64,000 bases of DNA from an uncultured Paracoccaceae bacterium. GTDB taxonomy: Bacteria; Pseudomonadota; Alphaproteobacteria; Rhodobacterales; Rhodobacteraceae. The translations under genes and the position numbers were made by a program. The stretch covers positions 62,001 through 126,000 of the forward strand of contig CANLEQ010000006.1 of the NCBI GenBank assembly GCA_947489705.1. Direction: 5' to 3'. The notes under the pieces were generated by a model. It was not told the origin of the DNA. It saw only the letters and a program-made list of their open reading frames with translations, and ran no database searches. This document shows, in pieces, positions 1,387-5,352 of this stretch (position 1 is its first letter; every line of letters begins with the position of its first letter).

Positions 1387-2187
1387 ATGGCACGTCCCTT
1401 TACTACGATAGCAACGGTGGCGACGGTCACTTCCCTTATGGGAGCAACCGGAGCGCTGGCCGCAACGGTTACCGTCGACAACTTCTCGGTCGACCAGAGC
1501 GTCTCGGCGACGGGCGGTCCGACGTCCTCGACCGTTTGCAGCTCCGAGGACAACATCCTCGGCGGATGCCGCTACATGCAGGTGGCCACCGACGGTCCCA
1601 GCCAGAACGGAACGTCGCTCGAGGCAAGCCAGAGCGTTCTCGAGTTCGCCAACAACTCGTCCAGCACTGGCACCGGCTGGATCGTCTATGACGGAAGCGC
1701 GGATCGGTCTTCCGCGACCTTCTACGGCGATGTCGCCGGCGAGAATCTCGACGTGGCCGTGAACTCCACCGGTCTCGGCGGCTACGACTTCCTGATGGGA
1801 ATGTCGGACGGCTTCTTCGAGTTCAGCGCAGACAACTTCGACAATCTGGCACCCGGTGCACTCGAATTCAGCGCGTTCGCATTCGATCTGAGCGGCAACA
1901 CCGTGTCGTATTCCGAGTCGATCGACCCGCTGTCGTTCAGCCCGATCCTGGCATTCTCGGACTTCCGGTCCGACTGGAACGACCCGAATTCGGGCCTTGG
2001 CGGCTTCCAATTTGACAATGTCGGTGCGCTCGCCTTCCGCGTCGACTCGACCGCGGTCGGGTTCGACGGACAGATCACCCAGATCACGGCGGCCGTGGTT
2101 CCGCTTCCCGCATCGGCCCTGCTGCTGCTGGGCGGTATCGGTGGCTTCGGCGGTCTCGCCGCTGCGAAGCGTCGCCGCAAAAGCTGA
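1387..2187 (+). CDS. exported protein with VPLPA-CTERM sorting signal
   Basis: This 266-residue protein has a Sec signal peptide (hydrophobic segment about residues 8-26, cleavage near GALA-AT). Its last 30 residues have the three parts of a PEP-CTERM-like sorting signal: VPLPA at 238-242, a Gly/Leu-rich membrane segment, and a basic tail (KRRRKS). The VPLPA version is known mainly from Rhodobacterales, where an exosortase processes such proteins, often alongside exopolysaccharide. The body is rich in Ser, Asp, Gly and Asn, with no recognised enzymatic domain. AGGAGG precedes the ATG at good spacing and a strong terminator follows, so it is monocistronic. No exosortase gene is in the window. 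Confidence 0.85.
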   Translation: MARPFTTIATVATVTSLMGATGALAATVTVDNFSVDQSVSATGGPTSSTVCSSEDNILGGCRYMQVATDGPSQNGTSLEASQSVLEFANNSSSTGTGWIVYDGSADRSSATFYGDVAGENLDVAVNSTGLGGYDFLMGMSDGFFEFSADNFDNLAPGALEFSAFAFDLSGNTVSYSESIDPLSFSPILAFSDFRSDWNDPNSGLGGFQFDNVGALAFRVDSTAVGFDGQITQITAAVVPLPASALLLLGGIGGFGGLAAAKRRRKS

Positions 2188-2231: not shown

Positions 2232-2260
2232 AAACGGCGGGTCTCGACCCGCCGTTTTTT
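2232..2260 (+). terminator. rho-independent terminator after the VPLPA-CTERM gene
   Basis: A GC-rich hairpin with arms AACGGCGGGT and ACCCGCCGTT and a tiny loop is followed by a run of six T. It sits 45 bp after the stop codon and is the clearest intrinsic terminator in the window. Confidence 0.9.
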
Positions 2261-2703: not shown

Positions 2704-5352
2704 ATGACTGCACTGAACCCGACCCGTGCGCGCCTGCTCGAAACGTTCGGTCTGGACGTGGAGCTCGTCGAAGGCGACGCCTGCCGCCTCAGGGACAAGG
2801 AGGGGCGCGAATATCTCGATTTCCTTTCGCAATACGGGGCATTGCCCTTCGGCCACAACCCGGCCGAGATCTGGGACGCGATTGTCGGGAACCGGACTGC
2901 CATGGCACCGGCCATGGTCCAGCCGCTGCGATCGATCGAGGCCGAGCGCCTCGCCGAGCGCCTCGCCGAGCTCACTCCCTTCGACCTCGGGATCGTCACA
3001 CTGGCCAATTCCGGCGCGGAAGCGGTCGAAGCCGCGATCAAGCTGGTACGCGCGCGCACCGGGCGGGACCGGATCCTCTCGACCCGCAACGGCTTTCACG
3101 GCAAGACACTGGGCGCGCTGTCGGCGACGGGCAAGCCGCTCTACCAGAAGGATTTCGCGGCGCCCGCGCCCGGGTTCGACTACGTGCCGTTCGGAGATAT
3201 TCCGGCGCTGGAAGCTGTGCTGACCGCCGAGGCCAAGGACGTGGCAGCCTTCATCGTCGAGCCCATTCAGGGCGAGGGCGGCGTCATCGTGCCGCCCGAA
3301 GGCTATCTCAACGACGTGATAGCACTTTGCCGCAAATATGACGTGCTTTGCATCGTCGACGAGATCCAGACCGGCCTCGGGCGTACCGGCCGGCTTTTCG
3401 CCTGCGAGGCGTGCGACGCGGCGCCGGACATCCTGCTTCTCGGCAAGGCTCTGGGTGGCGGGCTGATGCCGATCTCTGCCATGATCTGCCGTCCTTGCGT
3501 GTGGGACGACCGTTTCGGCACGCTGCACAGTTCGACATTCGCCAACAACAGCGTGGCCTGTGCCGCCGCGAACGCCGCTCTCGACAAGCTGACCGAGAAT
3601 GACGGGCAATTCGTCGAGGACGTCGCCCGGAAAGGGGAGTATCTGCGCAGCCGGCTGGAGGATCTCCACCGTCGCTATCCCGCGATCATCCGCGACGTGC
3701 GCGGGCGGGGCTTCATGGCGGGCCTCGAATTTCACAAGCCCTACGAGAAGGGTGATTCCGGGGCGATGGCGTTCTGCGGCCTTAATGGCGGCTTCATTGC
3801 GGTGCTCGGATCGTACCTGCTTAACGTCGAGGGCATACTGACGGCTCCGGTCTTCAACAATGCGCAGGTGATGCGCCTGCAGCCGCCGCTGATTGCCGGC
3901 CGCGAGGAAATCGACCGCTGCATCGCGGGGCTCGAAGCCGTCTGCGATCATCTCGAGGCCGGAAATTACGCCCTGCTGATGAAACATCTGGTCACGCCCG
4001 AGCGCCAGGCGCGGCTTGCCCTCTCGGAGCACATGGCGCCCCAGCAAGGGCCCGCACGCGGCGTCCCCGAGCCTGCGCCCGGGCGCTTCTGTTTCGTCAT
4101 CCACTATACCGAGGAGGAGGACCTTCTGCGTTCGGACCCGTCCTTCGCGCATTACACGCCCGAAGAACGGTCGGCCTGGTTGCAATGGGCCCGGCGGATC
4201 GGCCCCGGTTTCGCCTGGCCCGTGCCCGAGAGCCGGTCGCGCGCAGGCGCGACGGTAGAGGGGATGATCATGTCGGTCCCGCTTCTTCCCTCCGCGATGA
4301 TCGGCAAGGGGCGGACCCCGGCGCGGGACATGATCCGCGGCGCGGCGGACATGGCGGTCGATTACGGCGCGTCGCGCCTCGGTCTGGGCGCCTTCACCTC
4401 GATCGTGACGGGCGGCGGATCGGCGGTCGCGAATCGCGGCGTCCCGGTGACGAGCGGCAACACGCTGACCACCGTGGCGGCCGTCACCGCGATCGAACGC
4501 GTCGCGCAGCGCGCCGGCCTCGACTTGTCGGATGCGGATGTCGTCGTGGTCGGTGCGACCGGCGCCATCGGGCGGCTGGCGAGCCTTATGCTGGCACGCC
4601 GTGTCGGGCGCCTGTCGCTGGTCGGCAATGCCCGCAACCGCCATGCGCCGCAACTGATCGGAAAGGTCGCCGACGAGGTCGTGCGCACGCTGATGCAGGA
4701 ATCCCAGCCGCTCGCCGCGGGTGCGCTCTACGAGACGGTACGCCGCCACATGCCGCGGAACCCCGCATCCGACCGCAAGGACCTCGCCGGCACTTTCGCG
4801 GGGGCTTGCGCGGCGCAGGGACTGGCATCTCCGTTGGTGTCGACCACGGATCTGGAAACCAGCCTTGCCACCGCGGATCTCGTGCTGGTGGCGACGAGCG
4901 CGGATATCGCTCTGGTCGATCCGGCGACGCTCCAGCCGGGAACGATCGTCTGCGATGTCGCCCGTCCGCCCAATGTCGCGCAGGCCGACCTCGTGAACCA
5001 CGACGTGCTCGTCTTCGACGGGGGACTCGTGCAGCCGCCGTTCGAGATCGATCTGGGGCCGTTCCAGACCCTGCCCAAGAACCTCTCCTGGGGGTGCCTC
5101 GGCGAGACGATGCTGCTGGCGCTGGAAGGCGAGACGGCGGATTACAGTCTGGGCCGCGACCTCGTCCTGTCCGAGGCCGACCGCATCGCGGCGATGGCGC
5201 GCAAGCACGGGTTCGAGCCCGCCGAGCCGCAATGGCGTGGAGAACTGCTCGAACGCTCCGATTTCGTTCGGGTCGGCGCGGCGCGACGGCATCGCGAGGC
5301 AATGCTGGCCTTCAACGACCGCCGCAGCAGGCGCGAGATGCCCGGTCTCTGA
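2704..5352 (+). CDS. fusion of class III aminotransferase and acyl-ACP-reductase-like domain
   Basis: An 882-residue two-domain protein. Residues 1 to about 435 form a class III PLP aminotransferase of the acetylornithine/ornithine type: NSGAEAVEAAIK, VEPIQGEGG, DEIQTGLGRTG and the PLP lysine K248 in LLGKALGGG. Residues about 455-882 resemble cyanobacterial long-chain acyl-ACP reductase: a Rossmann motif GATGAIG at 617-623, and Cys798 in the context WGCLGETM-LLALEG, where that reductase family has its thioester-forming cysteine. The reductase family converts acyl thioesters to aldehydes. A fused aminotransferase could turn that aldehyde into an amine, but this is inference. The start is taken as the third of three clustered ATGs (2692, 2698, 2704), with GGGG upstream. 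It stands alone and is convergent with sqdC. Confidence 0.8.
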   Translation: MTALNPTRARLLETFGLDVELVEGDACRLRDKEGREYLDFLSQYGALPFGHNPAEIWDAIVGNRTAMAPAMVQPLRSIEAERLAERLAELTPFDLGIVTLANSGAEAVEAAIKLVRARTGRDRILSTRNGFHGKTLGALSATGKPLYQKDFAAPAPGFDYVPFGDIPALEAVLTAEAKDVAAFIVEPIQGEGGVIVPPEGYLNDVIALCRKYDVLCIVDEIQTGLGRTGRLFACEACDAAPDILLLGKALGGGLMPISAMICRPCVWDDRFGTLHSSTFANNSVACAAANAALDKLTENDGQFVEDVARKGEYLRSRLEDLHRRYPAIIRDVRGRGFMAGLEFHKPYEKGDSGAMAFCGLNGGFIAVLGSYLLNVEGILTAPVFNNAQVMRLQPPLIAGREEIDRCIAGLEAVCDHLEAGNYALLMKHLVTPERQARLALSEHMAPQQGPARGVPEPAPGRFCFVIHYTEEEDLLRSDPSFAHYTPEERSAWLQWARRIGPGFAWPVPESRSRAGATVEGMIMSVPLLPSAMIGKGRTPARDMIRGAADMAVDYGASRLGLGAFTSIVTGGGSAVANRGVPVTSGNTLTTVAAVTAIERVAQRAGLDLSDADVVVVGATGAIGRLASLMLARRVGRLSLVGNARNRHAPQLIGKVADEVVRTLMQESQPLAAGALYETVRRHMPRNPASDRKDLAGTFAGACAAQGLASPLVSTTDLETSLATADLVLVATSADIALVDPATLQPGTIVCDVARPPNVAQADLVNHDVLVFDGGLVQPPFEIDLGPFQTLPKNLSWGCLGETMLLALEGETADYSLGRDLVLSEADRIAAMARKHGFEPAEPQWRGELLERSDFVRVGAARRHREAMLAFNDRRSRREMPGL

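What the first reader, a model, noticed from the sequence alone, without database searches (positions are those of the whole stretch)
2704..5352. Aminotransferase fused to an acyl-ACP-reductase-like domain with the catalytic cysteine kept
One continuous frame joins a complete class III PLP aminotransferase (K248 in LLGKALGGG) to a domain that I read as homologous to cyanobacterial long-chain acyl-ACP reductase: GATGAIG at 617-623 and Cys798 in a WGCLGETM context where the reductase family has its thioester-forming Cys. Reductase plus transaminase in one chain suggests conversion of an acyl thioester to an aldehyde and then an amine. The gene stands alone but lies beside the sulfolipid operon, so a lipid amine is conceivable. 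Residues are seen; homology is recalled from the family; the coupled reaction is inference.
Basis: partly seen in the sequence, partly recalled or inferred. Interest (0 to 1): 0.82.

Follow-up and report, generated by a model that had tools for sequence, protein, structure and literature searches.

The report
Fatty-amine synthase beside exosortase-sorted surface protein
The gene encodes a two-headed enzyme that probably turns a fatty acid held on its carrier protein into a fatty amine, as known pigment-making enzymes do, but in this group of bacteria it comes paired with one particular surface protein and with the enzyme that sorts such proteins, which hints at a new use for fatty amines in building the cell surface.

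Summary
In detail: window 2704-5352 (+) is one 882-aa chain, a class III aminotransferase (Lys248) followed by an acyl-ACP-reductase-like domain whose Cys798 aligns with Cys294 of cyanobacterial acyl-ACP reductase. The chemistry is not new: PtTamH, same domain order, turns acyl-ACP into aldehyde and then amine (PMC9594044); PigE is the reversed-order relative. The new part is the setting. No tambjamine-like genes were seen beside it. In Rhodobacterales a VPLPA-CTERM surface protein lies within 1.3 kb in 20 of 27 loci; this partner is a distinct family, found in 16 of 16 fusion-bearing genomes tested and 4 of 63 without the fusion. The VPLPA exosortase XrtD is in 25 of 27 fusion-bearing genomes, against 52 of 246 without. 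One plasmid carries all three beside polysaccharide genes. Best reading: a fatty-amine synthase whose product works at the cell surface with an XrtD-sorted protein. The boldest open reading is that XrtD attaches the fatty amine to that protein. XrtD usually occurs without the fusion, so it is not XrtD's general acceptor. The sulfolipid neighbourhood looks incidental. Nothing here is tested at the bench.

The parts
2704..5352 (+). aminotransferase / acyl-ACP-reductase-like fusion gene (882 aa), proposed fatty-amine synthase
2764..3939 (+). class III PLP aminotransferase domain (residues 21-412)
   Evidence: PF00202 E 6.1e-94; best PDB fold match PigE aminotransferase 4ppm, 38-39% identity
3445..3447 (+). 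codon of Lys248, proposed PLP Schiff-base lysine
   Evidence: same residue in all 38 fusions aligned
3964..4080 (+). interdomain linker (residues 421-459)
   Evidence: pLDDT under 50 at 447-452; variable in the alignment; borders set by eye
4081..5241 (+). acyl-ACP-reductase-like thioester reductase domain (about residues 460-846)
   Evidence: TIGR04058 E 1.6e-23; PDB 6jzq E 9.8e-21; borders set by eye
4552..4572 (+). GATGAIG nucleotide-binding motif (residues 617-623)
   Evidence: G617 and G620 invariant in 38 of 38
5095..5097 (+). codon of Cys798, proposed thioester-forming cysteine
   Evidence: aligned to AAR residue 294; 38 of 38 fusions, partly circular because one of the two search patterns contained this Cys
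1387..2187 (+). partner gene: 266-aa protein with a C-terminal VPLPA-CTERM sorting signal (family called C1 here)
   Evidence: TIGR03370 E 2.3e-4, 21.1 bits against a cut-off of 25.35 (passes it only with its neighbours in the frame); conserved neighbour; profile search; distinct from 14 other VPLPA-CTERM proteins of the genome
2098..2181 (+). VPLPA-CTERM sorting signal of the partner
2232..2257 (.). terminator-like inverted repeat with T-runs on both strands between partner and fusion; they look separately transcribed
   Evidence: (11-pair stem; the number of such sites in the region is not above shuffles), sequence

Best explanation
The chain is a TamH-type fatty-amine synthase. Its C-terminal domain takes an acyl group from a carrier protein onto Cys798 and reduces it with NAD(P)H to a fatty aldehyde; its N-terminal PLP domain (Lys248) converts the aldehyde to a primary fatty amine with an amino donor such as glutamate. 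In Rhodobacterales it forms a functional set with one particular protein (C1), which bears the VPLPA-CTERM sorting signal and is therefore expected to be cut and anchored by exosortase XrtD. The fatty amine is thus most likely used at the envelope together with C1, as part of the surface or exopolysaccharide matrix. Shown computationally: domains, residues, gene adjacency, co-occurrence. Inferred: the reaction (from PtTamH and PigE), joint function with C1 and XrtD, and the fate of the amine.
For: Domains and catalytic residues. Proven chemistry in PtTamH of the same order and evidence for the same coupling in PigE. In two Chloroflexi chains the same pair follows an AMP-binding and a carrier-protein domain, and in a Leisingera plasmid protein an AMP-binding domain follows it, which fits a fatty-acid-to-amine line. 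VPLPA-CTERM gene within 1.3 kb in 20 of 27 loci (window plus 19 of 26), in three arrangements: upstream same strand 7, downstream convergent 9, upstream divergent 4. About 0.33 of 27 would be expected from 141 such signals in 46.6 Mb of 12 genomes, about 3.7 if the denser rate of the same flanks, one per 30 kb, is used (both products worked out by hand). C1 also lies beside the fusion in the three plasmid records of 53-58% identity. C1 in 16 of 16 distinct fusion-bearing genomes tested against 4 of 63 without. XrtD in 25 of 27 fusion-bearing genomes (24 of 26, plus own) against 52 of 246 family genomes without it, 51 of these over the cut-off; genus: 5 of 5 against 1 of 9. Fusion-bearing genomes are scattered in the XrtD tree, 12 changes of label, at least 10 forced by starred branches, so the co-occurrence is not one inherited event.
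Against: No activity has been measured. Most XrtD genomes lack the fusion (52 of 54 in the family sample), and G007 has an XrtD close to the window genome's and no fusion. Two fusion-bearing genomes have no XrtD detected (L026, a MAG, and L043 Pseudorhodobacter aquimaris; no exosortase-family match); both are held as contigs. Of the 24 with XrtD, the MAG of L029 is probably a mixed bin and its XrtD is split over two frames. C1 had no Pfam match, so its role is unknown. Shimia aestuarii (L027) keeps C1 on another contig. Outside Rhodobacterales only 4 of 13 fusion-bearing genomes have an exosortase-family match. The two plasmid relatives of 33-40% identity that I fetched (L201, L202) show no C1. 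Distances of fusion, C1 and XrtD correlate pairwise (fusion-C1 0.43, fusion-XrtD 0.63, C1-XrtD 0.41), but the species tree confounds this, and fusion tracks XrtD more closely than C1.
Confidence: 0.66

Rival explanations
1. The fatty amine is the acceptor nucleophile of exosortase XrtD: XrtD cuts the VPLPA signal of C1 (and perhaps other substrates), and the amine resolves the acyl-enzyme, leaving C1 with a C-terminal N-alkyl amide as lipid anchor.
For: Fusion and XrtD distances correlate at 0.63 (confounded by ancestry). Precedent in archaea: artA lies beside pssA and pssD in Methanosarcina; loss of the homologues in Haloferax blocks lipid attachment or substrate cleavage, and an amine lipid was proposed as nucleophile (PMC7157517 passages). 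[quoted passage not shown]
Against: XrtD occurs without the fusion in 52 of 54 sampled XrtD genomes; the window genome has 15 VPLPA-CTERM matches, yet the fusion is coupled to one family; two fusion-bearing genomes lack a detected XrtD; no special clade of XrtD goes with the fusion. The amine would have to reach the outer face of the inner membrane, where the exosortase active site is placed (PMC1569441 passages).
Confidence: 0.2
2. The fatty amine is built into an exported small molecule, glycolipid or matrix component (signal, surfactant or antibiotic), and C1 is a surface protein that binds it or protects the producer.
For: Known relatives serve natural-product pathways; the Leisingera relative lies near genes annotated as AHL synthase, pabB and MMPL transporter; several loci and the Rhodovulum plasmid lie near polysaccharide-export-like genes.
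Against: Besides the fusion and C1 no gene cluster is shared by more than 8 of the 27 loci (with some loci cut short by contig ends).
Confidence: 0.3
3. Fusion, C1 and XrtD merely travel together on plasmids and surface islands, without a shared function.
Against: Three different gene arrangements keep the C1 pair; C1 is kept even where it lies on another contig (L027); the window locus is not beside XrtD, yet the genome has it.
Confidence: 0.12
4. The reductase acts on a non-fatty or specialised thioester (hydroxyacyl, branched or polyketide), so the product is another amine.
For: Residues predicted to hold the acyl chain vary in this family (said of PtTamH in PMC9594044); no ACP or ligase gene is among the conserved neighbours.
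Against: The characterised relatives cited here use fatty or fatty-like acyl thioesters; the Chloroflexi relatives carry AMP-binding and carrier domains.
Confidence: 0.12

Closest known systems
PtTamH (tambjamine YP1 biosynthesis, Pseudoalteromonas tunicata; PMC9594044)
   Same: N-terminal class III transaminase, C-terminal AAR-like thioester reductase; catalytic Lys and Cys 547 residues apart there (K340, C887) and 550 here (K248, C798).
   Different: PtTamH is 941 aa and lies in a tambjamine cluster with the TamA ligase-carrier protein; here 882 aa, without such neighbours, paired with a VPLPA-CTERM protein. The PtTamH sequence was not in hand, so direct identity is untested.
PigE (prodigiosin MAP biosynthesis; NF053554; PDB 4ppm; PMC8341465)
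   Same: Both domains homologous; its aminotransferase is the best PDB fold match; evidence that PigE reduces a thioester and then transaminates.
   Different: Domain order reversed; 573.3 bits against a cut-off of 850; other pathway.
Cyanobacterial long-chain acyl-ACP reductase (TIGR04058; PDB 6jzq)
   Same: Sequence homology, nucleotide motif and Cys294 equivalent.
   Different: Separate 340-aa enzyme, in alkane biosynthesis; here fused to a transaminase and far below the equivalog cut-off.
ArtA-PssA-PssD archaeosortase lipid anchoring (PMC7157517, passages)
   Same: Sorting enzyme genomically linked to genes that make an amine-bearing lipid.
   Different: Archaetidylethanolamine proposed there, a single-chain fatty amine here; here the link to the sorting enzyme is statistical and mostly through one presumed substrate.

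Membership tests
TamH-type transaminase / thioester-reductase fusion | N-terminal class III PLP transaminase with catalytic Lys | tested here: met
   PF00202; K248 invariant
TamH-type transaminase / thioester-reductase fusion | C-terminal AAR-like domain with GxxGxxG and Cys | tested here: met
TamH-type transaminase / thioester-reductase fusion | acyl-ACP to amine activity | not testable with these tools
   known for PtTamH
TamH-type transaminase / thioester-reductase fusion | same clade as PtTamH | not tested
   PtTamH sequence was not in hand
TamH-type transaminase / thioester-reductase fusion | encoded in a tambjamine/prodiginine gene cluster | tested here: not met
   nearest genes are GntR-like regulator, VPLPA-CTERM gene, epimerase, GT8 and UDP-sulfoquinovose-synthase-like genes; the rest of the genome was not searched for tam or pig genes. 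It works like TamH but does not look like a tambjamine enzyme
PigE (NF053554) | score over curated cut-off 850 bits | tested here: not met
   573.3 bits
PigE (NF053554) | reductase domain first, aminotransferase second | tested here: not met
   order reversed
Long-chain acyl-ACP reductase (TIGR04058) | score over curated cut-off 449.7 bits | tested here: not met
   83.6 bits: homologue, not member
Long-chain acyl-ACP reductase (TIGR04058) | catalytic Cys294 | tested here: met
   C798 aligned to residue 294
VPLPA-CTERM protein (partner C1) | TIGR03370 signal at the C-terminus over cut-off 25.35 | tested here: inconclusive
   window protein 21.1 bits, over the cut-off only with neighbours in frame; relatives pass it: L034 32.2, L030 25.5 bits; the plasmid records name two orthologues so
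XrtD / VPLPA-CTERM sorting system | XrtD (TIGR04152) in the same genome | tested here: met
   two copies in own genome, 645.8 and 644.3 bits
XrtD / VPLPA-CTERM sorting system | XrtD cleaves and anchors C1 | not testable with these tools
   inference from the signal

The most novel reading that the evidence does not exclude
The fusion makes the lipid that a bacterial exosortase attaches to a sorted surface protein: XrtD would join the cut C-terminus of C1 to a fatty amine, giving an N-alkyl-amide anchor. That would be a one-gene supply of the unknown exosortase acceptor, parallel to PssA/PssD with archaeosortase ArtA.
Probability: 0.2. Interest if true: 0.9.

Novelty: new variant of a known kind. 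Interest (0 to 1): 0.66.

Why it matters
Fatty-amine synthases of this kind are known from pigment pathways. In Rhodobacterales one occurs, in nearly all genomes tested, with a particular presumed exosortase substrate and with the VPLPA exosortase. What exosortases attach to their substrates is described as unidentified in a paper whose passages I read (PMC7468200); a bacterial lipid-amine gene tied to the system gives a concrete and cheap test. If the link is instead to a matrix or a signal, it still suggests a new role for fatty amines at the cell surface. The ligase-carrier-transaminase-reductase chains in Chloroflexi could also be of use as biocatalysts.

Tried and rejected
Sulfolipid link: rejected as conserved context. 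First structure model with 5 sequences was poor (pLDDT 54.3) and was not used; the second with 38 sequences was good. Foldseek against the PDB listed only aminotransferase-fold chains in the 50 rows printed, so the reductase fold rests on sequence profiles and the model, not on a fold search. A PigE-family search of 385 genomes of the class did not report even the window protein at E 1e-120, probably because the domain order is permuted and only 2 candidates per genome were scored; its count was not used. Exosortase family with fusions outside Rhodobacterales: 4 of 13 genomes, so the link seems confined to this group. Split genes: of 41 loci outside Rhodobacterales whose reductase-like protein carries no transaminase domain (some cut by contig ends, L103 in two frames), one (L072) has a separate transaminase gene in the stretch held. 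Distance-correlation test: the first run took partial domains and was redone; it does not separate the hypotheses. The binomial, and notebook entry 3, used 21 of 27; the recount gives 20 of 27. In some searches only the 4 and 3 best candidates per genome were scored, so a fusion could be missed. The 98 genomes meant for one search were cut to 80. Literature: ten searches over open-licence PMC papers; in the listings, titles and abstract starts only and capped, I saw no paper that links an exosortase to a fatty-amine enzyme. Papers seen: PMC9594044 parts 1-3 of 5; PMC8341465 part 1 of 2; PMC1569441, PMC11980579, PMC7468200 and PMC7157517 passages only; the rest, listings.
Full report
WHAT IS THERE. 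Window 2704-5352 (+) encodes one 882-residue chain. Residues 21-412 are a class III aminotransferase (PF00202, E 6.1e-94) with Lys248. The C-terminal 428 residues match the long-chain acyl-ACP reductase model TIGR04058 (E 1.6e-23), PDB chain 4ppm of PigE (E 3e-34) and cyanobacterial AAR 6jzq (E 9.8e-21). Cys798 aligns with AAR residue 294, which PMC9594044 names as responsible for acyl transfer in Synechococcus elongatus AAR. A model built on 38 fusions has mean pLDDT 89.8 and pTM 0.85, with a low-confidence linker at 447-452; its best PDB match is the PigE aminotransferase (38-39% identity). Lys248 and Cys798 are kept in 38 of 38 aligned fusions. For the loci the Cys count is partly circular, since one of the two search patterns contained that Cys; the four same-genus relatives, first found by profile search, are not affected and keep it.

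THE CHEMISTRY IS KNOWN. I read parts 1-3 of 5 of PMC9594044. PtTamH, 941 aa, has the same order: transaminase first, AAR-like reductase second, with K340 and C887. It gave C12 amine from C12 aldehyde with glutamate or alanine, and C12 amine from C12 acid when coupled to the ligase-carrier protein TamA, with NADH and not NADPH; it did not use C12-CoA. PMC8341465 (part 1 of 2) reports evidence that PigE reduces a thioester and also transaminates the aldehyde. The cofactor and chain length of the window protein are unknown.

DISTRIBUTION. A scan of genome contigs gave 83 relatives, of which 80 loci were kept. By two profiles made here, 26 loci (L026-L051) score like the window protein (25 show both domains; L033 is cut by its contig end), and 13 further loci have the same domain order. 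A tree of 38 rows (window, 24 of the 26, and the 13; L033 and L049 left out) puts the 25 in one clade with full support, with a warning about long branches among the distant rows. Most of the 26 titles name Rhodobacterales; L029 is labelled Verrucomicrobia but nests inside and is probably misbinned.

THE CONSERVED NEIGHBOUR. Comparing the flanks of these 27 loci (window plus 26), the commonest shared gene besides the fusion is a protein ending in a VPLPA-CTERM signal (15 loci in one cluster, 5 more in two small clusters of the same kind). Counting any ORF with such a signal, one lies within 1.3 kb of the fusion in 20 of 27 loci, in three arrangements. The same expression found no such ORF in the 54 other loci. 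Background: 141 TIGR03370 matches in 12 genomes of 46.6 Mb, about one per 331 kb, so 0.33 of 27 expected; with the denser rate in the flanks themselves, one per 30 kb, about 3.7. In the whole 64-kb window the partner is the only such ORF.

The partner is a family of its own. A profile of it scores the window protein at 253 bits and the 14 other VPLPA-CTERM proteins of the genome at 32 or less; the best of those matches on the tail. The window protein and its kin are part of that profile, so its own high score is expected; the contrast with the other 14 is the point. A tail-trimmed profile was searched in 80 genomes: 17 of 17 rows with the fusion, 16 distinct genomes, have it, one copy each except one genome with two; ten of the sixteen had lent a row to the profile, the other six (G908, and those of L027, L031, L033, L036, L040, L045, of which G908 is L035) had not, with G908 and the six making seven that were not in it. 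Of 63 without the fusion, 4 have a homologue (G007, G939, G819, G020), and all four hold XrtD; none of the 17 that lack both fusion and XrtD has one. Nine plasmid records match the fusion. The three of 53-58% identity (Rhodovulum sp. P5, Haematobacter massiliensis OT1, Pseudorhodobacter turbinis) have the partner beside it; of the six of 33-40%, the two fetched (Leisingera, Paraburkholderia) do not.

EXOSORTASE. Six of the 26 loci hold an exosortase gene within the fetched flank; the one scanned matches XrtD (TIGR04152, 593 bits, cut-off 400), and the places agree for all six. XrtD is over the cut-off in 24 of the 26 genomes, one of them the suspect MAG of L029 with a split gene, and twice in the window genome, so 25 of 27. 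In the family sample XrtD is found in 52 of the 246 genomes without the fusion, 51 over the cut-off. In the genus, 5 of 5 with the fusion and 1 of 9 without have XrtD. On Rhodovulum plasmid pRGUI04 (64 kb) the annotation lists, within 18.6 kb, polysaccharide export and chain-length genes, the fusion, a VPLPA-CTERM protein and xrtD. In a tree of 76 XrtD proteins (26 from fusion-bearing records, 50 from others) the fusion label needs 12 changes, at least 10 forced by starred branches, against 21.9 in shuffles: it is clustered but not one clade. So the co-occurrence arose or persisted several times; equally, no special form of XrtD goes with the fusion.

HOW IT MOST LIKELY WORKS. Steps inferred from PtTamH and the AAR mechanism: acyl-ACP transfers its acyl group to Cys798; NAD(P)H bound at GATGAIG reduces the thioester; the aldehyde passes to the PLP domain and leaves as a fatty amine. 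The fate of the amine is inference. The pairing with one presumed XrtD substrate suggests that it acts at the envelope with that protein. The boldest version is that the amine is the nucleophile XrtD uses. Passages of PMC7157517 describe artA beside pssA and pssD and propose an amine lipid as ArtA's nucleophile; a passage of PMC7468200 says exosortases are proposed to conjugate the C-terminus to an unidentified compound. Against a general acceptor role stand the 52 of 54 XrtD genomes without the fusion and G007, whose XrtD is close to the window genome's. I therefore give that version 0.2 and keep the broader reading as best.

LIMITS. Counts are not corrected for shared ancestry. Many genomes are drafts or MAGs. 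The two fusion-bearing genomes without detected XrtD (L026, L043) count against the link. The distance test does not favour C1 over XrtD as the closer partner. No coordinates of the model were available, so the tunnel and the position of Cys798 could not be measured.

Noticed in passing
L052:6425-11107 and L055:631-5373: Chloroflexi chains of 1561 and 1581 aa join AMP-binding, carrier (PP-binding), class III aminotransferase and AAR-like domains: a possible complete fatty-acid-to-amine line in one protein.
   Followed up: partly
L201:11959-16146: Leisingera plasmid protein of 1395 aa: aminotransferase, AAR-like and AMP-binding domains, near genes annotated as AHL synthase, pabB, adenylate-forming enzyme and MMPL transporter; five Leisingera plasmids match.
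   Followed up: partly
L199 (NZ_CP015043.1 7588-26179): Rhodovulum sp. P5 plasmid carries polysaccharide genes, fusion, VPLPA-CTERM protein and xrtD together.
   Followed up: yes
L194, L195 (G939, G819): In two genomes without the fusion the C1 homologue lies between a gene for a 680-690-aa protein (AMP-binding in L194; the L195 one was not scanned) and, in L194, a branched-chain-type ABC ATPase gene.
   Followed up: no
L155, L156 (G000 contigs C26, C45): The window genome has two XrtD copies, one beside a HGSNAT-type acyltransferase and one beside an MBOAT acyltransferase.
   Followed up: no
L079, L080, L082, L084, L089, L105: Frames of about 690-740 aa whose second half is AAR-like, in Oceanospirillaceae, Hahella and other proteobacterial MAGs; in the one scanned (L079) the first half had no Pfam match.
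   Followed up: no
L033 (contig CAJXSZ010000013.1, 92,933 bases): The fusion is cut at one contig end while C1 lies near the other end, with XrtD about 5.5 kb from C1: the contig may be a circular plasmid.
   Followed up: no
L027, L028, L033, L034: A conserved protein of about 540 aa (cluster C3) lies downstream of the fusion on the opposite strand; the L034 copy had no Pfam or NCBIfam match.
   Followed up: no
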